Positions 6,600-52,674 of a stretch of DNA of 64,000 bases are shown piece by piece (positions within the stretch are counted from its first letter, which is position 1; the number at the start of each line of letters is the position of its first letter). Origin of the DNA: a virus. The notes beneath the pieces were generated by a model. The model was not told the origin of the DNA. It searched no databases and worked only from the letters and a program-made list of their open reading frames with translations. The translations under genes and the position numbers were made by a program. Where the stretch lies: positions 62,001 through 126,000 of the IMG/VR virus record IMGVR_UViG_3300050015_000276; one strand, 5' to 3'.

Positions 6600-6608
6600 T
6601 ACAAATCA

Positions 6609-6637
6609 ATTGTATCATATTCGTGAATGGATGTCAA
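6609..6637 (-). promoter_or_regulatory. Sigma70-type promoter, leaderless, leftward
   Basis: Read leftward: TTGACA, 17 bp, TGA-TACAAT; the ATG at 6599 is 9 nt after the -10. It drives the four-gene operon 6599-5485. Confidence 0.75.
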
Positions 6638-6663
6638 CCCTAAATATTTGTGAGTTTTCTTTT

Positions 6664-10021: not shown

Positions 10022-10942
10022 ATGAATTCCTACCTCGGCAATCCGGCATTAAAAGACGCTAACGTAAAGGTGGTTTGGACTCCTAAACGTTTAGAAGAAC
10101 TCCAAAAGTGTCAAGAGGATCCGGTTTACTTCATTACTCATTATATTCAGGTAGTAACATTAGATGAAGGTGTTACTAATTTCAAATTGTGGGATTTTCA
10201 AGCTAAATTAATTAAGAATGTACACGAAAATCGGTATGTTATTACCGTTATGCCGAGACAGTCTGGGAAATCAACAACCATGATTGCCTACTTTCTTCAT
10301 TTTATTTTATTCAACAAGTATAAAAGTGTTGCAATTCTTGCCAATAAACGCGATACTGCGGTTGAATTGTTGTCACGTCTTCAACTTGCTTTCGAATTAT
10401 TACCGATGTGGCTTCAACAAGGTGTTAAAGTTTGGAATAAAACGAGGATTGAACTTGAAAATGGTTGTATTATAACGGCTCATGCTACATCAAGCGCATC
10501 AGTTCGTGGACAGACATACAATATCATTTTCTTAGATGAATTCGCACATATTGATCCTAAATTGGCAGATAAGTTCTGGACTTCGACTTACCCCGTAATT
10601 TCTTCTGGTAAAACGTCAAAGGTTATTATTGTTTCAACGCCCAATGGAATGAATTTATTTTACGAGATGTGGGTGAAAGCAAATTTAGCTCACGATCATA
10701 AAGATTGGAATCAATTCATACCTCTTGAAGTTCATTATACTGAGGTACCCGGGAGAGAAGATCATGCCTGGGCAGATAAAATTATTTCTATAATTGGACA
10801 GGACCGATTCGATCAGGAATTTGGTCCGTGCGTACTAAAAACCCCTATATACTTATATGATACCATTTTACAAAAATGTGTTATAATACCTATAGGACAA
10901 TTATATGAAAGATTATGCGAACCTGAATTACTGGATAAATGA
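10022..10942 (+). CDS. gp17: Large terminase N-terminal part fused to split-intein N fragment
   Basis: Residues 1-269 are the ATPase half of T4-type gp17: Walker A MPRQSGKST, Walker B FLDEFAH, and a coupling motif STPNG. From Cys270 (codon at 10829) the sequence leaves the terminase family and becomes an intein N fragment of 37 residues (CVLKTPIYLYD...GQLYERL). This resembles the very short N half of the known AceL-TerL split intein. The ORF stops there. The matching C fragment and the nuclease half of terminase are at 11937. Protein trans-splicing should join residue 269 (EFGP) to CEFLGSG and give a terminase of about 579 aa, the normal size. An endonuclease gene separates the halves. Confidence 0.9.
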   Translation: MNSYLGNPALKDANVKVVWTPKRLEELQKCQEDPVYFITHYIQVVTLDEGVTNFKLWDFQAKLIKNVHENRYVITVMPRQSGKSTTMIAYFLHFILFNKYKSVAILANKRDTAVELLSRLQLAFELLPMWLQQGVKVWNKTRIELENGCIITAHATSSASVRGQTYNIIFLDEFAHIDPKLADKFWTSTYPVISSGKTSKVIIVSTPNGMNLFYEMWVKANLAHDHKDWNQFIPLEVHYTEVPGREDHAWADKIISIIGQDRFDQEFGPCVLKTPIYLYDTILQKCVIIPIGQLYERLCEPELLDK

Positions 10943-11069
10943 ACGTGGTTTAAATGAAACTGAAGCCCAACAACGAATAGAACAATATTTACAACGCCAA
11001 CATGATTCTGCAATACTTAATTCCGAAGACTTTTGGATTAACAAAAGAAATTTTAGAAAACGATTATAA
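10905..11069 (+). pseudogene. Probable N-terminal piece of the terminase-intein endonuclease
   Basis: This frame starts at an ATG inside the intein N fragment and reads MKDYANLNYWINERGLNETEAQ.... The same YWIxxGxxExEA motif occurs three times in the sister endonuclease at 44086. The frame runs to 11069, but the endonuclease continues in the frame open from 11002. Removing one T from the T4 run at 11031-11034 joins them (NSEDF-GLTKEIL). So the endonuclease gene probably begins at 10905 and carries a one-base insertion or a sequencing error. Confidence 0.55.
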
Positions 11070-11991
11070 AGAACTAAAATCTAAATACCAAGTTAAATTA
11101 AAATATGGAATTTCATTACATGTAATACAGAGATGGTTTAAAGAATTTGGAATAGAAACTACCTATTACAAGAAAATTGATAAAGTAAAAATGAAGGAAC
11201 TTTGTATTTCCGGAGAACCTGTTATTTATGCCGCAGACCAATTAGGTTGTCCAATTCATTATTATACAACAGAACGCAATAGATTAGGTTGGGTTTCAGA
11301 GCCAAAATTATTTGATTTTGAAACAACCAAAAAATTATGTGAAGAAATTGTAGGAATTTATTCGCAAGGAATAGACAAGGCTTTTCTTGCCGATCCAAAT
11401 TTAAGACACAGTGTAGAACATTACACTAAAGACCATTTTTTGGAATCGGATAAATTTACCGAAAGAGTATATCGAATAATACATAATTATAAACCAGATC
11501 AAAAAGATAAATGTAAAGTTACTGATGAACCTTTAAAATTCTATACAATCGTAAAAGGATATGGAGAATCTGAATTAAAAATTTCTAAACGAGGATCATT
11601 ATATTGTAAGTCTGCTGTTTCACAAAAAATGTTCAATGAAATTCACAAAAAACTTCCAAAAAAATTGCAAAAGAAGTGTAAGTTTTCTTCATTGAATAAA
11701 GAAGGACAAGTAAAAATAAATAAAAAAGATCAAAAACTTCCAGGAATGAATAAATTTCATTATCAATTAGATTTTTGTCTTGATAAACATAATATTGAAT
11801 TTGATGGAACTTATTGGCACTCCAACCGAAAAAACCAAGATAGTACAAGAGATAAATACTTACAAGGAAAAGGATATAAAATTCTTAGGATTACAGAATC
11901 CGAATATAATAAATACCCAAAAATTACCGTACAAAAATGTCTACAATTCTTGAAGGACTCCAACAAAATAACGGCCGCTACAAAATCTTAA
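11002..11991 (+). CDS. Vsr-like homing endonuclease between split-intein halves
   Basis: An endonuclease of the very-short-patch-repair-like class that accompanies fractured genes. The C-terminal catalytic block reads YQLDFCLDKHNIEFDGTYWH, then DSTRDKYLQGKGYKILRITE: the D...E-x-DG-x-YWH...RD...G-x-x-ILRI-x-E order of Vsr-type nucleases. The N-terminal region has helix-turn-helix-like segments (LTKEILENDYKEL...LHVIQRWFKEFGI). Its end overlaps the start of the terminase C part by 55 nt. It likely cuts intein-less terminase alleles to spread the element. The true start is probably 10905, with a one-base disruption at about 11031. Confidence 0.8.
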   Translation: MILQYLIPKTFGLTKEILENDYKELKSKYQVKLKYGISLHVIQRWFKEFGIETTYYKKIDKVKMKELCISGEPVIYAADQLGCPIHYYTTERNRLGWVSEPKLFDFETTKKLCEEIVGIYSQGIDKAFLADPNLRHSVEHYTKDHFLESDKFTERVYRIIHNYKPDQKDKCKVTDEPLKFYTIVKGYGESELKISKRGSLYCKSAVSQKMFNEIHKKLPKKLQKKCKFSSLNKEGQVKINKKDQKLPGMNKFHYQLDFCLDKHNIEFDGTYWHSNRKNQDSTRDKYLQGKGYKILRITESEYNKYPKITVQKCLQFLKDSNKITAATKS

Positions 11992-13226
11992 CACCAAATG
12001 GATATGAAGATTTTTCTGGTATAAGAAAATTAAAAAAAGATAAAGTTATTCATATCACTTTCATGGATGGTAGTTCAATTTCTTCCGCAGAAAATCATAT
12101 TTTTGTACTTTGGAATACAAAACTCATTTTTGCTGGAACATTAAAAGTTGGAGATGCTTTATACGCCAAAGATAGTATTCAATATATTTCCTCTATTGTT
12201 ATCGAAGAAAAAGAAACTGATTTTTATTGTGTTGTGAATTCTGGAAAAGATCAAGTTTATTTTAATGGAGAAAACAAAGTACTTTCCCACAATTGTGAGT
12301 TCCTTGGTTCTGGAGCTACATTAATTAATGGAAGATTTTTAAAAGCGATGGTTATTCTACCTCCAAAATATTCACAAAATGGTTTGGATGTATATAAAGA
12401 TCCCGGAAGAACTTTAAATGAACCTCGAATTTATGTTATTGCAGTTGATACCGCAAGAGGTAGACAACTGGATTATTCAGCATTTACTATCATCGACGTG
12501 ACGGAATCTCCTTATGAAGTAGTGGCTAAATATAGAAGTAATACCATTCCACCTGTTTTATTTGCTGATGTAATTGTTCCAATTGCTCAAAAATATAATA
12601 ATGCTTATATTATGATGGAAAATGATGGACCGGGATATCAAGTAGCAGATGATTTACATCACATACATGAATATCCTAATATTTTAATGGTTGCAACAAA
12701 AGGTCGGTCAGGACAAATATTAGCAACTGGATTTGGAAATACAGGTAAGAATGTTCAACGTGGTGTTAAAATGAGTACTCCGGTCCGTCGGACTGGTTGT
12801 ACCAATTTAAAAACACTTATCGAAACAAAACGATTAATTATCTATGATAATGACATAAAAGGTGAATTAGCCTCATTCGAATTGAAAGGTGATAAGTATC
12901 AGGCAGCCGAAAATCATCATGACGATTTGGTAATGACTCTGGTAACTTTTAGTTGGCTGACAACCCAAAAGCATTTTAGAGATATGGTTGAGGCCGCATT
13001 ACGTGAAGATTTACAAGAAGAATATACCCCGCAATTTGACCACGATTTAACCCCTTATGGATGGATTGAAACACACCATGATGTTGAAGAAGTTATACTT
13101 ACCGACAGAGATATTTGGAAAAGTGCTCAAAACGATGTTTGGGAACATTATGCCGAACAAGAACGGATAAAAGCTACCATTGATATGGTGAAATTAAAGC
13201 GATTGCAAGAAGTTGGTTGGGGTTAA
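11937..13226 (+). CDS. gp17: Split-intein C fragment fused to terminase nuclease part
   Basis: Residues 1-119 are the intein C fragment: YKILTPNGYEDFSGIRKL resembles the start of AceL-TerL IntC, block B is SSAENHIFVL, and block F/G is FYCVVN...VLSHN. The intein ends with Asn119, followed by Cys+1 (codon 12294). From there the C-terminal terminase half runs 310 residues, with nuclease acidic motifs VDTARG, MMENDGPG and HHDDLVM. Translation starts at an ATG inside the endonuclease gene. Residues 120-429 complete the 269-residue N part. All residues needed for splicing (Cys1, block B His, HN, Cys+1) are visible. Confidence 0.9.
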   Translation: MSTILEGLQQNNGRYKILTPNGYEDFSGIRKLKKDKVIHITFMDGSSISSAENHIFVLWNTKLIFAGTLKVGDALYAKDSIQYISSIVIEEKETDFYCVVNSGKDQVYFNGENKVLSHNCEFLGSGATLINGRFLKAMVILPPKYSQNGLDVYKDPGRTLNEPRIYVIAVDTARGRQLDYSAFTIIDVTESPYEVVAKYRSNTIPPVLFADVIVPIAQKYNNAYIMMENDGPGYQVADDLHHIHEYPNILMVATKGRSGQILATGFGNTGKNVQRGVKMSTPVRRTGCTNLKTLIETKRLIIYDNDIKGELASFELKGDKYQAAENHHDDLVMTLVTFSWLTTQKHFRDMVEAALREDLQEEYTPQFDHDLTPYGWIETHHDVEEVILTDRDIWKSAQNDVWEHYAEQERIKATIDMVKLKRLQEVGWG

Positions 13227-23556: not shown

Positions 23557-24207
23557 ATGCAACCAAACATACAAAACTCATTCTTAAATAACAAATACAC
23601 TAAAACTTACATTCGTATCACAGAACGTGCCAAGGACAGGATAATTCCTTTTGGTTACACCGAAAAACATCATATAATTCCAAAATGTAAACCATTTTGT
23701 GGACCAAACACAAAAGAAAATCTGGTCTCCTTATCATTCAAAGAACATTTGGTCTGTCATCATCTGTTACTGAAAATGTGTAAAACAAAATTAGAGAAAA
23801 TGAAAATGTATTATGCATTTAACCGAATGGGGCAAACAAGTTCAAATAATAAAAGGATTATTAATCTTAAATCTTATGACAGAATTAAGACTTATTATTA
23901 TGAATTAGGTTTAGGACGAATACCTTGGAATAAAGGTAAAAAAGGTAATAACCTTAAAAAAGAAACATGTATAAAAATGTCTTTGAGCAGAATTGGAAAT
24001 AAAAATAATTTAGGAAATTTTTGGTCTAAAGAAACTTATAACAAAAATTGTTGCAATTATAAAATAACTTTTCCCGACGGACACACCGAAATTGTAAATA
24101 ATTTGAGGCAGTTTTGTAAATATAATAATTTAAATTCAGGAAATATGAATCAAGTAGCTTTAGGTAATTTTAAACAACATAAAGGTTTTAAAGCCACCAA
24201 ATTATGA
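23557..24207 (+). CDS. HNH homing endonuclease
   Basis: Close relative of the HNH protein at 6664: NNKYTKTYIRITERAKDR, EKHHIIPKCKPFCGPNT, LSFKEHLVCHHLLLKM. It has fewer NUMOD3 repeats and carries the C-terminal TFPDGHTE...LRQFCKYNNLNSGNM...KQHKGFKATK module found in the GIY-YIG protein at 16579. It is under its own promoter after the capsid terminator and overlaps the next gene (TTATGAG). Confidence 0.87.
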   Translation: MQPNIQNSFLNNKYTKTYIRITERAKDRIIPFGYTEKHHIIPKCKPFCGPNTKENLVSLSFKEHLVCHHLLLKMCKTKLEKMKMYYAFNRMGQTSSNNKRIINLKSYDRIKTYYYELGLGRIPWNKGKKGNNLKKETCIKMSLSRIGNKNNLGNFWSKETYNKNCCNYKITFPDGHTEIVNNLRQFCKYNNLNSGNMNQVALGNFKQHKGFKATKL

Positions 24208-25568
24208 GAAGAAAAACAACCCAAGAATTTATTGAACAAGCAGAAAAATTATATCCGGGAAAATATTCTTATAAGAACACCGTTTATATAAAAAATTCTT
24301 CTTTAGTTAAAATACATTGTAACCTACATAATCTAGATTTTGAACAATCACCAGCAAATCATTTAAATTTTGAAGGATGTCCGGAATGTTTTTCTAACGC
24401 TCAACGAATAAAATTTTCCAAAACATCAGAACAATTTATAAAAGACGCTCAGGAAATTCATGGAAATAAATACGACTATTCTAAAACCAAATATAAATCT
24501 ATTTTAGAAAAAGTAGAAGTTATTTGTCCCGAACATGGTTCTTTTTTTGTATATCCGACAAATCATTTGAGAGGATGTGATTGTCAAAAGTGTGGTTATA
24601 ATAAAATTGCCGGAGGTTATTTTAATAAGTTTTTCCAAAAATATCCAGAAAAGAAAAATGAACCCGCAGTTATATATTTTTATAAATTTGAAAGACTAGA
24701 TGGAACTTATTTTTATAAATTAGGTATATCTACAAAAATTAAATATAGATATTCGGATAAACAATACAAAGCATTTAAAATTTCTATTATTTGGGAAGAA
24801 AATATGTCTTTATTCCAAACCTGGAATTATGAAAATATTTTAACTAAACTGTGGGAAAACTATCATTATACTCCACCAGAATCATTTAATGGAAAAACAG
24901 AATGTTATTCTAAAGAATTTTCTAAACCAAATTTTATTAATATATTTGATCATGAGTGGGAAAAGAAGAAAGAAATTATAATATCCAGATTTAATATCAA
25001 AAATCAAATAAACCAAAATATTATTCAAAAAATTCCTGCCAGAAAAACCACAATAAAAATAATTAATAAGACTGAGGCTTATAATTTTTTAGAACAAACA
25101 CATATTCAAGGATCTGTTAATTGTTCTATAGCTATAGGATTATATTTTAAAGAAAAATTAGTTTCTATAATGACTTTTGGTAAACCAAGATATTCTAAAT
25201 ATGACTGGGAATTATTACGTTTTTCGTCTGCACTAAATACTATTGTTGTTGGTGGTGCTTCTAGATTATTTCATTTTTTTACAAACGAATTTCATCCAAA
25301 AAATGTCATTTCGTATTCAGATAACAGATGGAATAAAGGAAATATATACGAAACTATTGGAATGAAATTTCTTCATAATTCTGATCCGAATTATTGGTAT
25401 ATTAAAGACGATAAGATATACTCAAGAATAAAATGTCAAAAACATAAATTACCAAAATTATTGGAAAATTTCAATCCAAACCAAACAGAATTACAAAACA
25501 TGACAAATAATGGTTTTAAAAAGGTAATTGATAATGGTAATAGTGTCTTCTTATTTGAAAATTCTTAA
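24204..25568 (+). CDS. Zinc-ribbon repeat protein, probable mobile endonuclease
   Basis: Two DUF723-like repeats at residues 5-60 and 75-130, each with FIxxAxxxxxxKYxYxxTxY and a CxxC pair (GCPECF; VICPEHG...CDCQKCG), which probably bind zinc and DNA. Then a GIY-YIG-like YFYKFERLDGTYFYKLGIS at about 155. Then a C-terminal domain (IQGSVNCSIAIGLYFKEKLV, FGKPRYSKYDWELLRF, ISYSDNRWNKGNIYETIGMK) that I know only from phage proteins of the mobile-endonuclease type. It is coupled to the HNH gene, so the two may form one mobile unit. Activity is unproven. Confidence 0.65.
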   Translation: MRRKTTQEFIEQAEKLYPGKYSYKNTVYIKNSSLVKIHCNLHNLDFEQSPANHLNFEGCPECFSNAQRIKFSKTSEQFIKDAQEIHGNKYDYSKTKYKSILEKVEVICPEHGSFFVYPTNHLRGCDCQKCGYNKIAGGYFNKFFQKYPEKKNEPAVIYFYKFERLDGTYFYKLGISTKIKYRYSDKQYKAFKISIIWEENMSLFQTWNYENILTKLWENYHYTPPESFNGKTECYSKEFSKPNFINIFDHEWEKKKEIIISRFNIKNQINQNIIQKIPARKTTIKIINKTEAYNFLEQTHIQGSVNCSIAIGLYFKEKLVSIMTFGKPRYSKYDWELLRFSSALNTIVVGGASRLFHFFTNEFHPKNVISYSDNRWNKGNIYETIGMKFLHNSDPNYWYIKDDKIYSRIKCQKHKLPKLLENFNPNQTELQNMTNNGFKKVIDNGNSVFLFENS

Positions 25569-42091: not shown

Positions 42092-42438
42092 AATTTAATG
42101 ATGTTGCCGATATTTGTTTAATAGTAGAAGAAATATTAGGAATTGAACCGATCAAAGTATTACATTTCTTATCCAAAGAAACTGATATGTGTATGTCAAC
42201 TTTCGATTTTGCATATGATATTATTACAGATAAGAGTACAAGTTATAAAGGAACAATAAATTCTAATATTTTACGGCGTCAAAAATCACCAAAAGGAAAT
42301 TGGGTTAATATAGATGGAAATAAAGAACAAAATTTAAATGCTCTTGATATGGCTCAGAAATATGGATTGTCGCCTCATTATTTTCGTTTAATTTTACGTG
42401 GAGAAAAAGAAACATACAAAGGTTGGCATCTTGAATAA
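42088..42438 (+). CDS. DNA-binding protein with NUMOD1-type C-terminus, 116 aa
   Basis: The C-terminal NALDMAQKYGLSPHYFRLILRGEKETYKGWHL is the helix-turn-helix module usually attached to homing endonucleases. There is no nuclease motif in the first 80 residues. It overlaps gp55 (ATGA) and the start of gp47. Either a remnant of a mobile endonuclease or a domesticated regulator. Confidence 0.6.
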   Translation: MKFNDVADICLIVEEILGIEPIKVLHFLSKETDMCMSTFDFAYDIITDKSTSYKGTINSNILRRQKSPKGNWVNIDGNKEQNLNALDMAQKYGLSPHYFRLILRGEKETYKGWHLE

Positions 42439-43489
42439 AATAGCAATTTTGACAGACCAACATTTTGGAGCCAGATCTGATAGTTTAGTTTTCTTAGATT
42501 ATTTTGAAAGATTTTACCAAGATATATTTTTTCCTTTTCTAAAGAAAAATAAAATTACTGAAATAATTTCTTTAGGTGATATGTTTGAGAGAAGGAAATT
42601 TTGTAATTTCTTAACATTAAAGAGAACACGCAAAATGTGGCTTGAACCATTATTAGAAAATAATTTTAAAGTTCACTGTTTATTAGGAAACCATGATGTT
42701 TATTATAAAAATACTAATGATGTTAATTCAATAAAAGAAATTCTTGGAAATTATTCAAATTTTATAATTTATAATGAAACTGAAGAAATAATGATCGATG
42801 ATACCAAGGTACTATTAGTTCCTTGGATTAACGATGAAAATCGAGAAACTTCTTTAAAAATCATTAATGAAACTGATGCCAAATATTGTTTTGGACATTT
42901 AGAACTTAACGGATTTTTAATGAATCGAGGTCAAAAATCAGAAGTTGGATTTGATGCTGAGCCTTTCAAAAAATTTGAAATGGTTGCAACGGGACATTAC
43001 CATCACAAATCGGATAAAGAAAACATTCATTATCTAGGATCCCCATATGAGATGACCTTTGCAGATATTAATGATCCTCGGGGTTTTCATATCTGGAATA
43101 CCAATACAAAAGAATTGGATTTTCATAAAAATCCCTATAAGATGTTTTATAAGATTTTCTATGATGATAAGGATCAACCTCTTTCTTCGTTGTTAAAGAA
43201 AATAACCGACAGATATCAAGATACCTATGTCAAAGTGGTAGTACATAACCGAACCAATCCTGAATATTTTGACAAATTCATGGAACATTTGTTTTCTATG
43301 CAACCTGCCGATATTAAAATTGAAGAGGATATATCAATAGATGCACCAGATATAATTGTGGATATGGCTGAAGACACACTTACCATTTTAAATAAGTATG
43401 TTGATACTTTGGAAGTTGATATTGACAAAGATAAAATTAAAGAGGAATTACGTTTGCTTCATATGGAAGCCGTAAATATGGAAAGATAA
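42431..43489 (+). CDS. gp47: Recombination nuclease subunit gp47 (Mre11-like)
   Basis: Calcineurin-type phosphoesterase that works with gp46 in DNA end resection. Metal motifs in order: ILTDQHFG, SLGDMFERRKF, LLGNHDVYY, FGHLELNG, ATGHYHHKS. 352 aa from a TTG start that overlaps the previous stop; T4 gp47 is 339 aa. A GTG further upstream would only add residues encoded over the preceding gene. Confidence 0.93.
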   Translation: MNKIAILTDQHFGARSDSLVFLDYFERFYQDIFFPFLKKNKITEIISLGDMFERRKFCNFLTLKRTRKMWLEPLLENNFKVHCLLGNHDVYYKNTNDVNSIKEILGNYSNFIIYNETEEIMIDDTKVLLVPWINDENRETSLKIINETDAKYCFGHLELNGFLMNRGQKSEVGFDAEPFKKFEMVATGHYHHKSDKENIHYLGSPYEMTFADINDPRGFHIWNTNTKELDFHKNPYKMFYKIFYDDKDQPLSSLLKKITDRYQDTYVKVVVHNRTNPEYFDKFMEHLFSMQPADIKIEEDISIDAPDIIVDMAEDTLTILNKYVDTLEVDIDKDKIKEELRLLHMEAVNMER

Positions 43490-43846
43490 ATGACAGTTCC
43501 TACTTTTACCGCATCAATTTTTATTGGTCTCAAACGTGGTTATACTGGTAAGGAGATGACAGTACAAGAAGTTGAAGACTTTTTGCAAGAAAAAGTAGAT
43601 AAAATTGGTTTGTGTGTTTCTATTACACCCACGCGATATGTCTATACTAATGGAAACGAAAATGGTTTAATAATTGGTCTGATAAATTATCCACGTTTTC
43701 CGTCTGATGAATATAAGATCCGTATGTGTGCTCTGGAATTAGCTGGCGATTTAATGTTGTTTTGTAAACAAATGCGTGTTTGTGTTGTATTTCCTGATAA
43801 AACTATTATGCTTTCTAATAGTGAAGAAATTGAAAAAGTAAAATGA
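43490..43846 (+). CDS. Hypothetical protein between gp47 and gp46, 118 aa
   Basis: Small alpha/beta protein (TASIFIGLKRGYTGKEMTVQEVEDFLQEKVDKIGLCVSITPT). The order 47 / small gene / 46 is common in T4-like phages. The start abuts the gp47 stop and the end overlaps gene 46 (ATGA). Function unknown. Confidence 0.65.
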   Translation: MTVPTFTASIFIGLKRGYTGKEMTVQEVEDFLQEKVDKIGLCVSITPTRYVYTNGNENGLIIGLINYPRFPSDEYKIRMCALELAGDLMLFCKQMRVCVVFPDKTIMLSNSEEIEKVK

Positions 43847-44061
43847 CAATCTTTAAACGTATAAAGTGGAAGAATTTACTCGGAACTGGTGACCAATTTA
43901 CAGAAATTGACCTTAATAAATCACCAACTACTTTAATTTATGGAACCAACGGAACTGGAAAGTGCCTTGCAAATTCCACAATTGTTAGTATCTTTGAAAG
44001 TGAAGAAAATAAAGCATTTAAAGAATTTAGAAATTTTATTAAAAATAAGTCTCTTTCTTAA
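43843..44061 (+). CDS. gp46: gp46 N-terminal piece fused to split-intein N fragment
   Basis: Residues 1-40 are the start of the gp46 (Rad50-like) ATPase up to the Walker A lysine (LIYGTNGTGK). Cys41 (codon 43963) then opens an intein N fragment of 32 residues (CLANSTIVSIFESEENKAFK...). The rest of Walker A (STLLDAL) is on the polypeptide encoded from 45188. Splicing must therefore occur for the ATP-binding site to exist. Between the two pieces is the endonuclease gene at 44086. Confidence 0.9.
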   Translation: MTIFKRIKWKNLLGTGDQFTEIDLNKSPTTLIYGTNGTGKCLANSTIVSIFESEENKAFKEFRNFIKNKSLS

Positions 44062-44072
44062 ACCGTTATAAG

Positions 44073-44080
44073 CATAAATA
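44073..44080 (+). promoter_or_regulatory. Late-type promoter CATAAATA, leaderless
   Basis: CATAAATA, 5 nt, ATG (44086): the intein endonuclease has its own late start. Confidence 0.55.
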
Positions 44081-44085
44081 TATGT

Positions 44086-45186
44086 ATGAATTTTAAAAGA
44101 AATCGTACATATGAAGAAAAATTAATTGATGCGTTGGACAATAATATTAAAAATATTGAACCTTCCAAAAGAGAAAATATTTTACAGGAAATGAAAACAA
44201 ATCTCGTAAGTGAAAATGTTATCAAAATACGAAAATATATTGTAGAAAAATATTTTGGAAGTCTACCTGAAAATGGAGCAAACACAGCGATTTATTGGAT
44301 TGCAAGAGGCTGGGAAGAATATACAGCAAAACGAAAATCTTCAGAATTTTTAGCCAAGAAAGGAAAGAGAAAATCACCTTTTCAAGTTTCGTTTTGGTTA
44401 GAAAAAGAAAATCCAAATACAGGTAAAAAGTTTACTGAACAGGAAGCAGAATATAAAGTAAGATCTCAAAGACCAATTAATTCAGAATATTGGATAGAAA
44501 AAGGATATTCTGAAGAGGAATCAATTAAATTAGCTTTAGATAAAAAAGATTCTAACAATAAAAGTGGTGCAAAAGCTAGTAGGAATAGATCTGGATTATC
44601 TATACGAAAAAGCAGTAAACGATGTGCTGAATATTGGATAGAACGAGGTAAGACAAAAGAAGAGGCTATTGAAGAAGTTAAAAAAAGTCAAAGTACTTTT
44701 TCTTTGGAAAAATGTATACTTAAGTTTGGTGAGGAAGAAGGAACTAAAAAGTGGCAAAAAAGACAAGACAAATGGATAAAAACTTTAAATTCTAAACCTC
44801 AAGAAGAAAAAGATAGAATTAATAGATCAAAAGTTGCTTTCGGTGGTATTTCAAAAGCCGAAAAATTTATAATGTCTAAAATAATTGATATTATTCCAGA
44901 ATTGCAAGTTCAATATAATATTGGAAATTATATTTGTGATTTTGTTTTGAACAAAAATGCTGTGGAATATTTTGGAGATTATTGGCATTGTAATCCTAAA
45001 AAATATAAACCAAAATTCATTAATAAAGTTAGTGGTTTGTCTGCTGAAGAAATTTGGGAAAAAGATAAGAAGCGAATAAAAGTTTATGAAGAAAATGGAT
45101 TCACAGTTAAAATTATTTGGGAAGATGACTTTAAAAAAAATCCTGAAAAAATTATATTGGATATTTTAAGTTTTTTGAAATCATAA
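44086..45186 (+). CDS. Vsr-like homing endonuclease between gp46 intein halves
   Basis: 366 aa. Three or four repeats of EYWIERGxxxEEAI (about 60, 95, 145, 180) probably bind DNA. The C-terminal Vsr-like nuclease block reads LQVQYNIGNYICDFVLNKNAVEYFGDYWH, then IWEKDKKRIKVYEENGFTVKIIWEDD. Ends 1 nt before the gp46 C piece. Same class as the terminase endonuclease at 11002. Likely cuts intein-free gene 46. Confidence 0.83.
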   Translation: MNFKRNRTYEEKLIDALDNNIKNIEPSKRENILQEMKTNLVSENVIKIRKYIVEKYFGSLPENGANTAIYWIARGWEEYTAKRKSSEFLAKKGKRKSPFQVSFWLEKENPNTGKKFTEQEAEYKVRSQRPINSEYWIEKGYSEEESIKLALDKKDSNNKSGAKASRNRSGLSIRKSSKRCAEYWIERGKTKEEAIEEVKKSQSTFSLEKCILKFGEEEGTKKWQKRQDKWIKTLNSKPQEEKDRINRSKVAFGGISKAEKFIMSKIIDIIPELQVQYNIGNYICDFVLNKNAVEYFGDYWHCNPKKYKPKFINKVSGLSAEEIWEKDKKRIKVYEENGFTVKIIWEDDFKKNPEKIILDILSFLKS

Positions 45187-45187
45187 A

Positions 45188-47143
45188 ATGATTTGTACAC
45201 TTCAAGATATTTATAACTTTTATAAAGAGTTTCCACAATATAGGGGACAACTTTCGGTTGAAACTCGTTTTGGATATTATCCAATTTTAGCTTGCGAATA
45301 TACGGCATACAATTCAGATGTTTATTTGGTAGAAATAGAAAATAATCATCTACTTTGTTCGCCAGAACATGAATTGTTTGTCAACGATTCATGGAAACAT
45401 GTTAGGGATATTCATTTAGGAGATAATATAAAAACTAAAGATGGTAATGAGAAAGTGAAAATATCCTTACTTCCGCAAAAAATGGATTTAATGGATTTAC
45501 AAGTTGCTGAAGTACATGAATTTTATGCCAATGATATTGTTTCTCATAATTCAACTTTATTGGATGCATTAACATTTGTATTGTTTGGAGTACCCTTTAG
45601 GAATGTTAATATTCCTATGTTAGTAAATGATACTAATGAAAGGGACATGGTTGTTGAGATTGAATTTAATTCTGGAAGAACAAACTATAAAGTCCGACGT
45701 GGATTAAAACCGCGAGTATTTGAAATTTATGCAAATAATGTGATGCTAGACCAGGAGTCTAAGGCAAAGGATTATCAGAAGTATCTTGAACAAAATATCC
45801 TTAAGTTAAATTTGAAATCATTCAAACAGGTTGTGGTACTTGGAAGTGCATCTTTTACACCATTTTTACAATTGTCTGCGGTTGAACGCCGAAATATTAT
45901 TGAAGATCTTTTAGATATTCAGATTTTTTCAGCCATGAATCTTGCACTTAAAGTAAAAGTGGCAGAAATGAAAGAGGAATACATTTCTCTTTCTAATTCT
46001 ATCGAATTACAAACGGAAAAGATTGCGCTTATAAATGCTTATCTTAATAAATTAAAATCGGATAATGTGAATGCTATATCTGATAAGCGTTTAATTATTA
46101 ATGATAATAATCAACAAATAGAAACAATTTCAGATCAGATCAGAGGTATTGAGGAAGAAATTTCAGAGTTATTTACAACAATCGATGATAAGGAAAAAGT
46201 TCAGGGTAGAATTCAAAAATTACAATCTGCGGAAGACAAATTAGAGACCAATAAAATTAAGGTTGTTAAAGAAAAAAAGTTTTATGAAGAAACAAGTAAT
46301 TGCCCAACATGTAAACAAGGTATTGATGATACATTTAAAAATGATATAATATCTCAAAAAACAGTTTTAATAAAAGATATTGAAAAGGCTTTGGTATCTT
46401 TAACAAAAGATCTGAATACTTCAGAGGCTAGGTTAGTTGAGATTTTGGAAATTACAAAAAATATTGAGAACAAAACAAATGAGATTAGACATTTGGAAAG
46501 TACTGTCCGCGCCATCGATTCCTTCATTAATAAAGTCGAAGTTGAGATTGAAGATCTCCAAAAGAATAATGGTAACACGAAAGAACAGGAAACTAAATTA
46601 CAAGATCTTGAAAGTGATATGATTTCTTTGGCATCGGAACGTGATATTTTGATTTCTAGAAAGCATTCATTGGATATTATTTCTGTGTTATTGAAAGATA
46701 CTGGAATTAAGACCAAGATTATTAGACAGTATCTTCCAATCATGAATAAATATGTCAATAGGTATTTGGCCGATATGGATTTCTTTGCCAACTTTGCACT
46801 GGATGAAAATTTTCGAGATACAATTCACATTCGTGGAAGTAAAGAAAGAACCTATTACCAATTAAGTGAAGGACAAAAATTAAGAATTGATTTGGCACTT
46901 TTATTTTGTTGGCGGGATATAGCTAAAATTAAAAATAGTGCAAGTACTAATCTTCTCATAATGGATGAGATATTTGAACGTAGTATGGATGCTACCGGTC
47001 TTGAGGATTTATTAAAAGTAATTCATAGTTTGAGTAGGGATATTAATATTTTTATTCTCAGTCCTCAGGGTGATTTGTTGATTGATAAGTTTATCAATAC
47101 TATTAAGTTTGTAGAAGATCATGGATTTTCCGTGATTGAATGA
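45188..47143 (+). CDS. gp46: Split-intein C fragment fused to gp46 C-terminal part
   Basis: Residues 1-121 form the intein C fragment (block B LLCSPEHELF, HLGDNIKTKDG, block F/G EVHEFYANDIVSHN). Ser122 is the +1 nucleophile and second half of Walker A (STLLDALTFVLFG). The following 530 residues are gp46: coiled-coil arms, zinc hook CPTCKQG at about 371, ABC signature QLSEGQKLRIDLALL, Walker B LLIMDEIFERS. Spliced length 40 + 530 = 570, close to T4 gp46 (560). Confidence 0.93.
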   Translation: MICTLQDIYNFYKEFPQYRGQLSVETRFGYYPILACEYTAYNSDVYLVEIENNHLLCSPEHELFVNDSWKHVRDIHLGDNIKTKDGNEKVKISLLPQKMDLMDLQVAEVHEFYANDIVSHNSTLLDALTFVLFGVPFRNVNIPMLVNDTNERDMVVEIEFNSGRTNYKVRRGLKPRVFEIYANNVMLDQESKAKDYQKYLEQNILKLNLKSFKQVVVLGSASFTPFLQLSAVERRNIIEDLLDIQIFSAMNLALKVKVAEMKEEYISLSNSIELQTEKIALINAYLNKLKSDNVNAISDKRLIINDNNQQIETISDQIRGIEEEISELFTTIDDKEKVQGRIQKLQSAEDKLETNKIKVVKEKKFYEETSNCPTCKQGIDDTFKNDIISQKTVLIKDIEKALVSLTKDLNTSEARLVEILEITKNIENKTNEIRHLESTVRAIDSFINKVEVEIEDLQKNNGNTKEQETKLQDLESDMISLASERDILISRKHSLDIISVLLKDTGIKTKIIRQYLPIMNKYVNRYLADMDFFANFALDENFRDTIHIRGSKERTYYQLSEGQKLRIDLALLFCWRDIAKIKNSASTNLLIMDEIFERSMDATGLEDLLKVIHSLSRDINIFILSPQGDLLIDKFINTIKFVEDHGFSVIE

Positions 47144-47189: not shown

Positions 47190-48149
47190 ATGAATATTTC
47201 TTTGCCCAAATATACTCCAAATAATTATGAAAATTTAATGTCCTCGATAGATCCGATTGATGAATATTTGGGATTTTCACTGAAAATGGGAGATAATTTT
47301 CATCTTGGACCAATTGTTGGCTCGAAGGCGCGCCAATGTTTGCATGTTGTACATTCTAATTTGGAATATATCAAAAATAAATGTAACGGTGGTATTTTAA
47401 CTGCCGCAGGATTGCCATCTCCTCAAACAATGATTGTCTCGGCGGTTGCTAAATATTTTGGTTTAAAATGTGTTATTACGATTCCCAAATACGATAATAC
47501 TAAACGAGATTTTAATCGTATTAATGCTTCAATGGCGCAGAAATTTGGAGCGATTGTATACGGTGTGGGAAATCCAAATCCGGCTGGTCCAGAACATGAT
47601 GCAAAAGAATTATCAAAACAATTAGGATATTTTCAAGTTAAATTTGGTATGACAGGTGATGTTGCAATGCAGCCCGTATCTAATCAAGTTCAAAATATTC
47701 CAGAATATGTTAAAGATATTGTAATTATTAGTGGATCTGGTTTATCGGCATTGAGTGTCCTATTAGGTACAGCAATGTTCGATAATAATATTGAGACTCT
47801 CCATACTGTGTGTTTGAGCAATCATATATTAAAGAATAAAGAAAAGTGGTATGATTCTAATCCACTTTCATGTAAAGTAAAAACTAAGTTACATTTGATT
47901 CCTTCAGATATTAATTATCGAACAGAATATAAATGGAATAAATCTTTCGACTTTGATTTGATTTATGAGAGTAAAGCATTTTTGTGGATGGTTGAGAATT
48001 TTAAGCCTTCGAAGGAAGTTTTGTTTTGGGTTGTTGGAAAAAGATTATATGATTTGACTTTGATTGAGGATATAAACTGGCATATGTCCAATCATGAAAA
48101 AGAGTTAAGAGAAGAACCGACAGATTTTATGGAACAATTTTTCGTATGA
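47190..48149 (+). CDS. PLP-dependent fold-type II enzyme (deaminase/desulfhydrase-like)
   Basis: 319 aa. GSKARQ (probable PLP lysine K46), GGILTAAGLPSPQTMIVSAVAKYFGLKCVITIPKYD and IISGSGLSALSVLLG (phosphate-binding loop) match the ACC deaminase/D-cysteine desulfhydrase/threonine-synthase group. The substrate cannot be read. First gene of an operon with overlapping stops and starts that also holds GNAT, ACP, SDR and ligase. Leaderless promoter. Confidence 0.75.
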   Translation: MNISLPKYTPNNYENLMSSIDPIDEYLGFSLKMGDNFHLGPIVGSKARQCLHVVHSNLEYIKNKCNGGILTAAGLPSPQTMIVSAVAKYFGLKCVITIPKYDNTKRDFNRINASMAQKFGAIVYGVGNPNPAGPEHDAKELSKQLGYFQVKFGMTGDVAMQPVSNQVQNIPEYVKDIVIISGSGLSALSVLLGTAMFDNNIETLHTVCLSNHILKNKEKWYDSNPLSCKVKTKLHLIPSDINYRTEYKWNKSFDFDLIYESKAFLWMVENFKPSKEVLFWVVGKRLYDLTLIEDINWHMSNHEKELREEPTDFMEQFFV

Positions 48150-48628
48150 GTTTACTAAGACTAGCAAAAATAGAGGAAGTTCCACAAATACATAAAGAGT
48201 TTCAAAAGTTTGAAAAGAAACAAAAGTTGGAGGGTAAACCTCCAGTATTTGCTTTTATTAGACAAGATTATTTAAAGCGGTGTGTTGCTGATGCAACATT
48301 GTATTTTGATGATGGAATTATTGCCGTATTGAAACAATATAAAGTGAGAACGAAATACGGTAATGAAAAAGGTGAGTGGGGTTTATTGGAACTTTTAAAT
48401 ACTAATTTATCGAATAATTTTACTATATTGAAATTCATGCATAAGTTATTAGATGAAAAGGTTAAAAATAGTAAACTTTATGCTACTATTAGAGATGATA
48501 ATGTAGCGTCAATAAAATTTCATACGGCGTTTGGATATAAACGTACAAAAGATATTATGTGGTCTAATGGTACGTTACCTGGTGGAGTTTATGTTTTTAA
48601 CAATATGAAAGATAAGGATTGGTTTTAA
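48146..48628 (+). CDS. GNAT-family acyltransferase
   Basis: 160 aa. The fold is suggested by GEWGLLELLNTNLSNNF followed by LYATIRDDNVASIKFHTAFGYKRTKDIMW, the motif-B region (N-x-x-S-I-x-F-x-x-x-x-G-F/Y). Overlaps the PLP gene by ATGA. In this context it might acylate an amino group made by the PLP enzyme or take an acyl group from the adjacent carrier protein; inference. Confidence 0.72.
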   Translation: MSLLRLAKIEEVPQIHKEFQKFEKKQKLEGKPPVFAFIRQDYLKRCVADATLYFDDGIIAVLKQYKVRTKYGNEKGEWGLLELLNTNLSNNFTILKFMHKLLDEKVKNSKLYATIRDDNVASIKFHTAFGYKRTKDIMWSNGTLPGGVYVFNNMKDKDWF

Positions 48629-48631
48629 ATA

Positions 48632-48934
48632 ATGGAAAAAACCTGTGTAGAAACACTTTGTGATATTTATTCGCGGTTTATACCTACCGGACAAGTATAC
48701 GTTGCAACTGCTAACACTAAGATTTTTGGATGTGATACTGTTTTGGATTCTTTTGGATTAGTTTCTTTCCTGGTAGATGTCGAACAGCATTTTAATGATT
48801 TGTATGATGCCAATATTGTTGTGACAGATAGTAAAGCTATGTCACAAAAACATAGTCCTTTCCGTACAATTGATACGTTATCCAAATATATAATTAAATT
48901 GTTGTCAGAAAAAGGTATCGCCAATGTTGTCTGA
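48632..48934 (+). CDS. Acyl carrier protein-like
   Basis: 100 aa. LDSFGLVSFLVDVEQHFND carries the DSxxxVxxxxxxE phosphopantetheine site, with Ser40 as attachment. It is a free-standing carrier; the C-terminus is helix-rich. Overlaps the SDR gene by 11 nt. A host phosphopantetheinyl transferase would be needed. Carrier proteins are rare in phages. Confidence 0.78.
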   Translation: MEKTCVETLCDIYSRFIPTGQVYVATANTKIFGCDTVLDSFGLVSFLVDVEQHFNDLYDANIVVTDSKAMSQKHSPFRTIDTLSKYIIKLLSEKGIANVV

Positions 48935-49628
48935 TTTACCGATTGCTCTTGTTACTGGTAGCAGAACTGGTTTGGGAGAATTCATTGCTAAAGGTCTTGT
49001 TTCCAAAGGTTTTTATGTTGTTGGATGCAGTCGCAATCAACCAAATTGGTCATTGAAAGGATACGAACATATTATTGCTGATGTGAGTGATGAAAATTCT
49101 GTATTAGATTTGATGAAGTATATTAGAGTTGAGTATGGACGTTTGGATGCCACTATTAATAATGCTGGAATAGCTTCCATGAACCATTCATTATTAACAC
49201 CTACGAAAACAGTGGAACATCTTCTTGGTGTAAATGTTTGTGGTACATTTACAGTATGCCGAGAAAGTGCAAAAATTATGCAAAAACAGAAATATGGACG
49301 TATTGTTAATTTTACTACCGTTGCGGTTCCTATGCATATTGAAGGTGAAGCTTTATATGCTGCCAGTAAAAGTGCTGTAGAAACTCTTACTAAAGTATTG
49401 GCATTTGAATTGGGTAGTTATGGTATTACTATTAACGCTGTAGGTCCTACTCCTATTGATACTAATTTAATACTTAATGTTCCTGAATATCGAACAAATC
49501 AGGTTATTCAGAAATTGGCAATTAAACGGATGGGTACGCGCGAGGACGTTTTTAATGTTATTGAGTTTTTTATACGTCCAGAAAGTAGTGCCATTACAGG
49601 GCAAGTTATATATTTGGGTGGGGTATAA
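48924..49628 (+). CDS. Short-chain dehydrogenase/reductase (FabG-like)
   Basis: 234 aa. Cofactor motif ALVTGSRTGLGEFIAKGL, NNAG at about 80, catalytic YAASKSAVETL, and a C-terminus ITGQVIYLGG as in 3-oxoacyl-ACP reductases. Located between the carrier protein and the ligase, so reduction of a carrier-bound keto group is a natural guess. Confidence 0.88.
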   Translation: MLSDLPIALVTGSRTGLGEFIAKGLVSKGFYVVGCSRNQPNWSLKGYEHIIADVSDENSVLDLMKYIRVEYGRLDATINNAGIASMNHSLLTPTKTVEHLLGVNVCGTFTVCRESAKIMQKQKYGRIVNFTTVAVPMHIEGEALYAASKSAVETLTKVLAFELGSYGITINAVGPTPIDTNLILNVPEYRTNQVIQKLAIKRMGTREDVFNVIEFFIRPESSAITGQVIYLGGV

Positions 49629-50968
49629 TGAATCATCTTGATTGGTTGTTTGATATATTTAAACAAAATGCTGGCCGGACTTTCATGGTTTGGGGTGGCC
49701 TTCCTATTACATATTCAAATTTAATACGTTATATACAATATTATAAAGAGAAATTTATTGAATCTGGAATTAAAGGTGGAAAAGTAATAGCTTTACATGG
49801 GGATTATTCACCTAATAATGTGGCCGCTTTGTTAGCTTTGGTTGATGATGGAAATATTGTAGTTCCTTTAGCATCAATTAAAGAAGAATTTATAGATATT
49901 GCTGAAGTTCAGGCTATTTGTTCTTTTGATGAATATGGAAAAATACAACTTAAGTGGTTTCCTAGAGAAGTACATCACCAACTTAATTTGGATATAATTG
50001 CTAGTGGTAATCCGGGTTTGATTTTGTTTAGTTCAGGATCTACTGGAAAATGTAAAGCGTCAATGCATGATTTTTTGCAAGTATTGAATAAATTTAAAAT
50101 TCCTAGACGACAATTGGTAACATTACCTTTTCTTAAATTTGACCATATGGGAGGAATCAATACACTTTTTGGTGTATTATCAAATGCTGGTACTCTAGTT
50201 CTTAGTTCTAATCGAGATCCAGAATTTGTGTGTTCGGCTATTGAAAAGTATAGAGTTGAATTGTTGCCAACTTCACCTACTTTCCTTAATCTTTTGTTGG
50301 TTTCCGAGGCATATCAGAAATATGATTTATCTTCTCTCAAATTTATTAGTTATGGATCTGAAATGATGCCTCAGGTGACCTTATTACGTATTGCAGAACT
50401 TTTTCCCAATGTTAAGTTATTACAAACTTATGGACTTTCTGAGGTTGGTGTTTTAAGATCAAAGAGTGAGAGTTCCAATTCTTTGTGGCTCAAAGTTGGT
50501 GGTGAAGATTTTCAAACTAAAGTTGAGGATGGAATATTATTCATTAAGGCAAATTCTGCGATGAAAGGATATTTTAATGCTCCTTCTCCTTTTGTTGATG
50601 GTTGGATGAATACTGGCGACCGAGTAGAAGTGAAGGGAGAATATATACGTTTTCTTGGTCGTGATTCAGAAATCATTAATGTTGGTGGACAAAAAGTTTA
50701 TCCGGCAGAAGTTGAAAATGTTTTACTGTCTATGAGTAATGTTTGTGATGTTACCGTTTCGGCTGAATCTAATTTTTTAATGGGTTATATAGTAGTAGCT
50801 CGATTTAATCTAATTGATAATGAAGATTTCTTATCATTTAAATCCAGAGTGAGAGAATATTGTAAGTCGCGTCTTGAGTCATTTAAAATACCAACTCGAA
50901 TAGAGATAGTAGAAAAAGAACTATTTAATAGTCGTTTTAAGAAAATAAGGTTTCAGGAGCAAATGTGA
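49628..50968 (+). CDS. AMP-forming acyl/aryl ligase (ANL superfamily)
   Basis: 446 aa. Core motifs in order: P-loop LILFSSGSTGKCKA, QTYGLSEVG, MNTGDRVEV, GRDSEIINVGGQKVYPAEVE, and a lysine near the end (SRFKKIRF). It activates a carboxylic acid as adenylate and loads CoA or the neighbouring carrier protein. Starts on the SDR stop (TAATG) and overlaps the next gene (ATGTGA). Confidence 0.88.
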   Translation: MNHLDWLFDIFKQNAGRTFMVWGGLPITYSNLIRYIQYYKEKFIESGIKGGKVIALHGDYSPNNVAALLALVDDGNIVVPLASIKEEFIDIAEVQAICSFDEYGKIQLKWFPREVHHQLNLDIIASGNPGLILFSSGSTGKCKASMHDFLQVLNKFKIPRRQLVTLPFLKFDHMGGINTLFGVLSNAGTLVLSSNRDPEFVCSAIEKYRVELLPTSPTFLNLLLVSEAYQKYDLSSLKFISYGSEMMPQVTLLRIAELFPNVKLLQTYGLSEVGVLRSKSESSNSLWLKVGGEDFQTKVEDGILFIKANSAMKGYFNAPSPFVDGWMNTGDRVEVKGEYIRFLGRDSEIINVGGQKVYPAEVENVLLSMSNVCDVTVSAESNFLMGYIVVARFNLIDNEDFLSFKSRVREYCKSRLESFKIPTRIEIVEKELFNSRFKKIRFQEQM

Positions 50969-52674
50969 ATAACCAACCAAAGTATTATTATGATAGAAAT
51001 TCTTATATTATCGATGATTATAACATTAATAAAACTTTTGAAGAATTGTTGTTAATGTCAGTTACAGAATTTGAAGGGTGGGTTGACCACATGCGTTCAA
51101 GTGTTTTGAAGGTGTGGGATGAAAAAGGAATACCACCTCTTTCTGGAATGACTGAAGATGATATGTCTGAAGAATTCCGTAAAATGAGCGGAACGCCTGG
51201 TAAAACTATTTCATTATATAAACCAAAATCTGGAAGTACTAAGCCATATATTGATGAATTAGATGGTAAGGCTAATGTGATTATCAATGATGGTTATATG
51301 GGAAGTTGTGTAAATCAGTTCTTTCCAACAATGGCCCAGACAAAGATTAATTATCAGACAAAGATTAATGATGAAGGTAGTTTTTCTGGATATGCCGTAT
51401 ATGATCTTTTTGCTAATGATAAATTTCGAAATAGAATGCAAAAGGGATGTCGGAGACATTTTAAACGAGACTCATTCTACCGTTATTCAGCATCTATTCT
51501 CAAAAATAGTAATTTAGGGCTCGTACCAGCAGAAACCGGCAAAGAGTGGGTTCAATTATTTAAAAGAGATTTTGTCCGATTTGTAGATTATGGATATTGG
51601 CTCAATAGAGTAGAACCGACAGAAGAAGGTGAAACTGGTAGCGGATATACAGAAGTTGATGCTTCTAATTTCTTGTGGTTATCTAAAGCCGAGATTTTGG
51701 AATTATATCATTTAGGAATTATTAATGATGAAAATCTTACTAATTTGGTTGATTTGAGATCATATGAATTACTTCCTAAATTTGTTTGTTGGACTCCAGA
51801 ATTGGAATTAGAAAGACATTTGAAAGAGGATGAACAATATCATATTCGATTTTATAAGAAATCAACACGAATATTTCCAATAGGATTTACCGCTTTTAAA
51901 ATAGGTTACATACAAGTTGCAGTTAATTTTCCACCTATGATTGCTAAGTATTTGTATGAAAAATACACAGATAATTGTAAAGGACAGCATGTTATTAATG
52001 TTTACGACCCATCATCCGGATGGGGCGGCCGCATAGCTGGTGCTATGACAGTTCAGGAAGATCGGCATATTAATTATATTGGAACCGATCCGAATACAGA
52101 TAATTTTATTGATGAACTTGGTATTACTCGTTATGAGTATTTGGCACAATTTATTAATCAATCGCTTTCATCAGGATGGGGGTATGAACCTCATACTTAT
52201 GATGTTTATCAATTGGGTTCCGAAGTAATTGGAAAAGATAAGAAATTTAAAAAGTATAAAGGTAAATTAGATTTGGTGTTCACCTCTCCGCCATATTTTA
52301 ATCGTGAAGGTTATTCTGAAGATGAAACTCAATCTTTGAAGAAATTCCCTCAGTATGATGCCTGGCGAGAAGGATTTTTGAAGCCAACGCTGACAACAGC
52401 ATATACTTATTTAAAACCAGACCGGTATCTTTTATGGAATATTGCCGACATTAAAACATCTGAAGGATATTATCCTCTTGAACAAGATAGTAAAGATATT
52501 TTAAAATCTCTGGGAGCCGAATTTGTTGGAGTGGAAAAGATGGTTTTGGCAAATATGCCTGGAACTAATCGGGTAGGTGAAGATGGTAAACCTACATGCA
52601 AAAATTTCTGCAAAGTAAATGGTCGTTGGCATAAAACTGAATTGATTTTTATTTTTAGGAAACCAAAGATATAA
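50965..52674 (+). CDS. DNA methyltransferase-like protein (TSPPY type)
   Basis: 569 aa. SAM-binding motif DPSSGWGGRIAGAM at about 348 and catalytic TSPPYFNREGYSEDE at about 440, typical of N4-cytosine/N6-adenine methyltransferases. The N-terminal 330 residues are an unrecognised domain with an SGTPGKTISLYKPKSG segment. Last gene of the operon starting at 47190. It may protect phage DNA, or act with the upstream enzymes in base modification (speculative). Its last 17 bp before the stop region are repeated after the next gene. Confidence 0.82.
   Translation: MNNQPKYYYDRNSYIIDDYNINKTFEELLLMSVTEFEGWVDHMRSSVLKVWDEKGIPPLSGMTEDDMSEEFRKMSGTPGKTISLYKPKSGSTKPYIDELDGKANVIINDGYMGSCVNQFFPTMAQTKINYQTKINDEGSFSGYAVYDLFANDKFRNRMQKGCRRHFKRDSFYRYSASILKNSNLGLVPAETGKEWVQLFKRDFVRFVDYGYWLNRVEPTEEGETGSGYTEVDASNFLWLSKAEILELYHLGIINDENLTNLVDLRSYELLPKFVCWTPELELERHLKEDEQYHIRFYKKSTRIFPIGFTAFKIGYIQVAVNFPPMIAKYLYEKYTDNCKGQHVINVYDPSSGWGGRIAGAMTVQEDRHINYIGTDPNTDNFIDELGITRYEYLAQFINQSLSSGWGYEPHTYDVYQLGSEVIGKDKKFKKYKGKLDLVFTSPPYFNREGYSEDETQSLKKFPQYDAWREGFLKPTLTTAYTYLKPDRYLLWNIADIKTSEGYYPLEQDSKDILKSLGAEFVGVEKMVLANMPGTNRVGEDGKPTCKNFCKVNGRWHKTELIFIFRKPKI

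What the first reader, a model, noticed from the sequence alone, without database searches (positions are those of the whole stretch)
43843..47143. Second fractured gene: split intein cuts the Walker A motif of gp46 between K and S
Seen: GTNGTGK ends the first extein, a 32-residue fragment starting with Cys follows, and the second polypeptide has a 121-residue intein C fragment ending SHN before STLLDAL. Neither polypeptide alone has an ATP site, so the recombination nuclease needs trans-splicing. A Vsr-like endonuclease lies between, with its own late promoter. Two independent split inteins with the same layout in one genome, in packaging and recombination genes, suggest either parallel invasion or a phage-controlled switch.
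Basis: partly seen in the sequence, partly recalled or inferred. Interest (0 to 1): 0.87.

Follow-up and report, generated by a model that had tools for sequence, protein, structure and literature searches.

The report
Split-intein fractured gp46 gene in phage
A phage's key DNA-recombination gene (gp46, the phage Rad50) is broken in two at its ATP site by a self-joining split intein with a homing endonuclease gene between the halves; this is a new member of a known class of selfish elements, and over 70 relatives at exactly the same site show how such elements swap parts, decay and sometimes heal.

Summary
Gene 46 (SbcC/Rad50-like) is cut between K and S of its Walker A motif: GTNGTGK + 32-aa IntN (window 43843-44061), a 366-aa Vsr-like endonuclease (44086-45186), then a 121-aa IntC ending SHN + STLLDAL... 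(45188-47143). IntC models as a Hint fold (pLDDT 95.7; best match the split intein VidaL), all class-1 splicing residues are present, the 179.7-kb record holds no other gp46, and the closest gp46 relatives (65-68% identical) carry an intact, intein-free GK|S site. Best reading: a trans-splicing "fractured gene", a known kind (Dassa et al. 2009), here in gp46. The claimed late promoter is not supported, and a phage-controlled switch has no evidence. Two split inteins in one genome is ordinary for intein-rich phages. Beyond the finding: about 76 distinct inteins sit at this gp46 K|S/T site, with intact, broken or absent endonucleases; four are contiguous mini-inteins. Their endonucleases share one recognition module but carry at least three nuclease cores. 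Searching viral contigs with that module alone lands on gp46 in 72 of 75 cases; searching with the whole endonuclease, mostly matched through its nuclease core, in 1 of 30.

The parts
42398..43489 (+). gp47 (SbcD/Mre11-like nuclease), partner of gp46
   Evidence: PHROG_100 E=4e-106, Pfam Metallophos
43843..43962 (+). gp46 N-extein, ends ...GTNGTGK (Walker A up to Lys)
   Evidence: PHROG_77 profile 295-333, E=1.5e-12; start ATG overlaps the previous stop
43963..44058 (+). IntN, 32 aa, begins with Cys1
   Evidence: sequence; homologous IntN of 24-36 aa at the same site in relatives
44073..44080 (+).
   Evidence: 5 bases before the ATG; motif count no higher than in shuffles
44086..45186 (+). homing endonuclease, Vsr/EDxHD-like, 366 aa
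   Evidence: Pfam DUF559 E=9e-6; Foldseek top match I-Bth0305I catalytic domain 3r3p prob 1.00, then Vsr 1vsr 0.99
44365..44628 (+). module A (endonuclease residues 94-181), the stretch that tracks the gp46 site
   Evidence: retrieves gp46 loci in 72 of 75 cases; full-endonuclease search control 1 of 30
44629..44835 (+). module B (residues 182-250), shared also with endonucleases at TerL
44851..45183 (+). Vsr/EDxHD-like nuclease core with CDF, VEYFGDYWH and WEKD motifs kept
45188..45550 (+). IntC, 121 aa: block B SPEH (H61), block F D103, penultimate H120, terminal N121
   Evidence: alignment with 15 relatives; model pLDDT 95.7, best fold match VidaL intein 6vgv TM 0.82
45551..47143 (+). gp46 C-extein starting Ser+1 Thr (STLLDAL), with Zn-hook CPTC, signature LSEGQ and Walker B LLIMDE
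   Evidence: PHROG_77 profile 334-953, E=8e-127; motifs
10022..10942 (+). TerL N fragment + 37-aa IntN (10829-10939): the first fractured gene
11002..11991 (+). endonuclease between the TerL halves, Vsr/DUF559-like
   Evidence: Pfam DUF559 E=2e-7
11937..13226 (+). TerL C fragment: 119-aa IntC (11937-12293) ending SHN before CEFLGSG

Best explanation
This is a 'fractured gene': a mobile class-1 split intein with an atypical split (short IntN) inserted at the Lys|Ser junction of the gp46 P-loop, with a free-standing homing endonuclease gene in the break. The two gp46 polypeptides are translated separately, IntN binds IntC to complete a Hint domain, and trans-splicing (Cys1 / Ser+1, release by Asn121) joins ...GTNGTGK to STLLDAL... 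to restore a working Rad50-like ATPase. The endonuclease probably recognises intein-free gp46 DNA at the P-loop codons and cuts it, so that repair copies the whole cassette (IntN-endonuclease-IntC) into the rival allele. Shown here: gene layout, abutting exteins, splicing residues, Hint fold of IntC, empty site in relatives, recurrence at one site, intein/extein tree conflict, endonuclease decay and loss, association of a recognition module with gp46. Inferred: that splicing occurs, that the endonuclease cuts, and where.
For: Exteins abut in PHROG_77. All class-1 residues are kept, with H61, D103, H120 and N121 invariant in 16 aligned sequences. IntC model pLDDT 95.7 matches VidaL, NrdJ-1 and gp41-1 inteins; the IntC profile hits gp41-1 (E=1.5e-15), VidaL, CatC and NrdJ-1. 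Intein-free near relatives L002-L007; L002 and L003 group with the window's gp46 at 100/100 support, while the intein tree holds only far kin; the window gp46 branch (0.25) is no longer than those of intact relatives (0.19, 0.28), as expected if the spliced product still works. Horizontal transfer: L080/L083 inteins 86% against exteins 52% identical. 32 distinct inteins at the site: 15 split with an intact endonuclease ORF, 13 split without one (one remnant L079, one broken L145), 4 contiguous. Module A alone finds gp46 in 72 of 75 loci, against 1 of 30 for the full-endonuclease query. L208/L213 carry the endonuclease gene (frame-broken in L208) directly before an intact gp46.
Against: No splicing or cleavage data. 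The endonuclease model is of low confidence (pLDDT 65.9) and sequence similarity to I-Bth0305I/Vsr structures is weak (E=0.24). No co-conversion footprint could be seen because the nearest intein-free relatives are too far.
Confidence: 0.88

Rival explanations
1. The split is a phage-controlled switch: recombination nuclease activity is delayed or tuned by when the two halves are made and spliced.
For: gp46 should be inactive until spliced; a second essential gene (TerL) has the same layout.
Against: Near relatives do without it; endonuclease presence changes at least 12 times and split/contiguous state at least 4 times on the intein tree; contiguous forms exist; the late promoter is not supported.
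Confidence: 0.06
2. The two polypeptides work as separate subunits by non-covalent assembly, as with split NrdA of phage Aeh1, and the intein is dead.
For: Split phage enzymes that reassemble without splicing are known (PMC2988022).
Against: The cut lies inside the P-loop between Lys and Ser, where a covalent backbone matters; splicing residues and IntC are conserved across relatives only 28-48% identical and IntC models as a Hint fold, which selection would not keep in a dead intein.
Confidence: 0.04
3. Assembly artefact or pseudogene.
For: The record is a metagenomic virus contig.
Against: Same layout in dozens of contigs from different samples; gp46 frames are intact and the gene's branch is as short as those of intact homologues.
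Confidence: 0.02

Closest known systems
Fractured genes with split inteins and Vsr-like (EDxHD) homing endonucleases (Dassa et al. 2009, cited in PMC7090010 and PMC12350094; full text not held, content from memory)
   Same: Conserved phage enzyme gene broken by a split intein with a free-standing Vsr-like endonuclease gene between
   Different: Host gene is gp46/SbcC; I could not check whether gp46 is among the gene types of that paper. No paper in the searched library uses the phrases gp46 intein, SbcC intein or Rad50 intein
Atypically split inteins AceL-TerL (25/104), GOS-TerL (37/115), VidaL (16-aa IntN) (PMC11766414, PMC13014065)
   Same: Short IntN (here 32 aa), long IntC (121 aa), class 1; VidaL is the best structural match
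   Different: Inserted in gp46; Cys1/Ser+1 instead of the Cys+1 of the TerL inteins
P-loop inteins at Lys|Thr, e.g. TerL1-a of mycobacteriophages (PMC5050341)
   Same: Insertion between the invariant Lys and the following Ser/Thr of Walker A
   Different: This one is split, with the endonuclease as a separate gene in the break; that paper does not mention split inteins
I-Bth0305I and other EDxHD/Vsr homing endonucleases
   Same: Nuclease core of the window endonuclease
   Different: Carries a recognition module (residues 94-250) that in relatives is joined to GIY-YIG-like or a third type of nuclease core

Membership tests
Fractured gene (Dassa type) | Conserved enzyme gene split in two by a split intein, exteins abutting | tested here: met
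   PHROG_77 295-333 and 334-953; IntC Hint fold
Fractured gene (Dassa type) | Free-standing endonuclease gene in the break | tested here: met
   ORF 44086-45186 with its own start and stop
Fractured gene (Dassa type) | Trans-splicing restores the enzyme | not testable with these tools
   Only residues and fold could be checked
Class 1 intein | Cys1, block B His, block F Asp, penultimate His, terminal Asn, Ser/Thr/Cys+1 | tested here: met
   C1, H61, D103, H120, N121, S+1
Atypically split intein | IntN of about 15-37 aa with a correspondingly long IntC | tested here: met
   32 and 121 aa; range from PMC13014065
Atypically split intein | Exact split position S1 or S2 | tested here: inconclusive
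   Contiguous L075 shows where the break falls in sequence, but no fold of the joined intein was made
EDxHD/Vsr homing endonuclease | Vsr-like nuclease fold | tested here: met
   Foldseek 3r3p prob 1.00 E=0.015, 1vsr 0.99, from a low-confidence model; profile top hits 3r3p, 3hrl, Vsr, all weak
EDxHD/Vsr homing endonuclease | Catalytic acidic residues and His kept | tested here: met
   CDF, VEYFGDYWH and WEKD aligned with relatives; D285, E294, G297, H301 invariant among five
EDxHD/Vsr homing endonuclease | Cuts the intein-free allele | not testable with these tools
   Only the association of module A with gp46 loci
gp46 / SbcC / Rad50 | ABC ATPase halves with Zn hook, next to gp47 | tested here: met
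   Walker A, CPTC, LSEGQ, LLIMDE; gp47 at 42398

The most novel reading that the evidence does not exclude
The gp46 P-loop is a homing hotspot at which one DNA-recognition module has been joined to at least three different nuclease cores (Vsr/EDxHD, GIY-YIG-like, and a third, possibly PD-(D/E)XK), while the accompanying split intein is repeatedly transferred, loses its endonuclease, and heals back into a contiguous mini-intein by a small in-frame deletion (L172 split against L179 contiguous, 36 bp). If so, split inteins are not an evolutionary dead end, and a recognition module independent of the catalytic type sets the target.
Probability: 0.6. Interest if true: 0.68.

Novelty: new member of a known kind. 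Interest (0 to 1): 0.55.

Why it matters
It adds the phage Rad50 (gp46) as a recurrent host of split inteins and supplies about 72 natural short-IntN split inteins, useful raw material for protein ligation tools. The family shows most stages of an intein homing cycle at one site: empty site, free-standing endonuclease, fractured with endonuclease, decayed endonuclease, split without endonuclease, contiguous. It also makes a direct test possible of whether target choice lies in a module that is swapped independently of the nuclease. The target is itself a recombination gene that may help repair the break homing depends on (gp46/47 are listed as possibly involved in homing in PMC2988022).

Tried and rejected
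Late promoter before the endonuclease: rejected. Searches for the same intein in bacterial/archaeal genome contigs: 334 pattern matches, none confirmed. Papers on gp46, SbcC or Rad50 inteins: none; gp46 plus intein papers mention them separately. Dassa 2009 full text not held. Co-conversion footprint: nothing readable, relatives too diverged. Clear intein-tree placement of the window intein: unresolved, no starred clade. Kinship of the TerL and gp46 inteins in the window: no significant similarity (best E=0.36).

Full report
Observation. Gene 46 of this 179,687-base virus record is in two pieces. The first ends GTNGTGK followed by Cys and 31 more residues; the second begins with 121 residues ending SHN, then STLLDAL. 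In the SbcC-like family PHROG_77 the first piece covers profile positions 295-333 and the second 334-953, so the two exteins abut. Walker A is thus cut between Lys and Ser. Zn-hook CPTC, signature LSEGQ and Walker B LLIMDE lie in the second piece, and gp47 lies upstream. No other gp46 was found in the record; the record may be incomplete.

The intein. Aligned with 15 relatives, IntC keeps the block B His61, block F Asp103, His120 and Asn121 without exception. Its model (pLDDT 95.7) matches VidaL (TM 0.82), NrdJ-1 and gp41-1 inteins, and its profile finds gp41-1, VidaL, CatC and NrdJ-1 sequences first. IntN of 32 aa is within the 15-37 aa of atypically split inteins (PMC13014065). Lys|Ser/Thr in the P-loop is a classic intein site (PMC5050341).

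The empty site. The nearest gp46 genes (L002-L007, 65-68% identical) are uninterrupted, GK|ST; exteins join the window with L002 and L003 at 100/100 support, and the window's branch is not clearly longer than theirs. Records of L002 and L003 show no intein hit at all.

The family at this site. Profile-guided scans of viral contigs gave 32 distinct inteins at gp46 GK|S/T: 15 split with an intact endonuclease ORF, 13 split without one (including remnant L079, broken L145 and L080 with an unrelated ORF), 4 contiguous. A second scan with an endonuclease module gave 48 loci with a GK|C N fragment, 4 of them already in hand: about 76 distinct sequences, 72 of them split. Intein and extein histories conflict: L072 pairs with L075 by intein (96/90) but with L086 by extein (100/99) (the L072-L075 pairing is weaker in the larger tree, 86/33); L080 and L083 inteins are 86% identical against 52% for exteins. 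The contiguous forms are not one clade (AU p=3e-7) and the state changed at least four times. L172 (split, 28-base gap) and L179 (contiguous) differ at the break by 36 bases in frame, with inteins 80% and exteins 68% identical in DNA; both lie inside a clade whose other members are mostly split and carry endonucleases, so healing of the break is the simpler direction (the tree is not rooted by an outgroup).

The endonuclease. The window protein has a Vsr/EDxHD-like core (model of low confidence) and an upstream recognition region. Residues 94-250 are shared in whole or part (33-54% identity) with the other intact endonucleases found at gp46 in the first set, whose nuclease cores fall into a Vsr type (with a divergent sub-type in L145/L150), a GIY-YIG-like type (L076 and others) and a third type (L027, L139, L143, L160; PD-(D/E)XK is a guess). 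The window's closest recognition modules (L139 54%, L027 51%) carry a different nuclease from its own. Residues 94-181 (module A) were not detected in the endonucleases beside TerL in Cr30, L028 and F379, while 182-250 were. Scanning with module A alone, which contains no gp46 or intein sequence, gave 75 loci, 72 at gp46; scanning with the whole endonuclease, mostly matched through the nuclease core, gave 30, of which one at gp46. Weak module A matches occur at other fractured genes (L259, TerL; L034, L048, L052, L053). L208 and L213 have such an endonuclease gene directly before an intact gp46; in L208 it reads in two overlapping frames. The seeds of the module A query were all gp46-site proteins, so shared descent explains part of the association; what descent alone does not explain is that the link holds across changes of nuclease core and of intein lineage. 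That the module binds DNA is inferred from its position and distribution.

What it does. The evidence fits a selfish homing cassette that is harmless because trans-splicing restores gp46. Splicing and cutting themselves were not tested. A regulatory role is not needed and is made unlikely by the absence of the element in near relatives and its frequent decay. The claimed late promoter (CATAAATA, 5 bases before the ATG) is not above chance and, by the usual T4 late geometry (own knowledge), would start transcription at or after the start codon. A caveat: several exact TATAAATA motifs in the window do lie shortly before structural genes, so the phage may well use such promoters elsewhere.

The TerL case. 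Window 10022-13226 is a second fractured gene with 37-aa IntN and 119-aa IntC, sizes close to GOS-TerL (37/115, PMC11766414). Its intein has no significant similarity to the gp46 intein. A third intein, contiguous with an HNH domain, sits in thymidylate synthase. Several records with the gp46 intein carry further intein hits, so two split inteins together are not remarkable.

Novelty. The kind is known (fractured genes; atypically split inteins; P-loop insertion). The host gene gp46 and the size and life cycle of this family I did not find described in the papers I could search, but the founding paper was not available.

Noticed in passing
window 10022-13226: TerL is also fractured: 37-aa IntN, endonuclease, 119-aa IntC before CEFLGSG, sizes like GOS-TerL.
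   Followed up: partly
G000:C1:165290-165871 (L061 985-2883): Thymidylate synthase (phrog_85) with a contiguous intein holding an HNH domain: a third intein in the same phage.
   Followed up: partly
window 47190-50968: Small metabolic cluster right after gp46: PLP-enzyme-like, GNAT, a small ORF resembling an acyl carrier protein by eye (no Pfam hit), short-chain dehydrogenase, AMP-binding ligase; unusual for a phage.
   Followed up: partly
window 50965-52674: 569-aa ORF with an N6/N4 DNA methylase match at its C-terminal end.
   Followed up: no
window 6475-7494, 16579-17286, 23557-24207, 24204-25568: Several further ORFs that read like homing endonucleases near structural genes; by eye only, no domain search run.
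   Followed up: no
L065 1337-4683 (Campylobacter phage F379): TerL fractured inside its own P-loop region (MQPRQ|C ... SHN|SSKST) with a GIY-YIG-type (T5orf172) endonuclease between.
   Followed up: partly
L029 588-3589: Helicase gene (gp41/DnaB-like by eye) fractured at GVGK|S with a Vsr-type endonuclease between.
   Followed up: no
L067 29-1996 (Vibrio phage vB_VmeM-32): UvsX/RecA-like gene annotated in two pieces with a SegG-like endonuclease between and a HintC domain: looks fractured too.
   Followed up: no
L057 1-2564: The stretch before the gp46 C fragment in this contig holds a TnpB-like gene (by eye) and other ORFs; no N fragment in the 2.5 kb present.
   Followed up: no
L080-L082 5561-5986: A 141-aa ORF without Pfam match takes the place of the endonuclease between gp46 halves.
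   Followed up: partly
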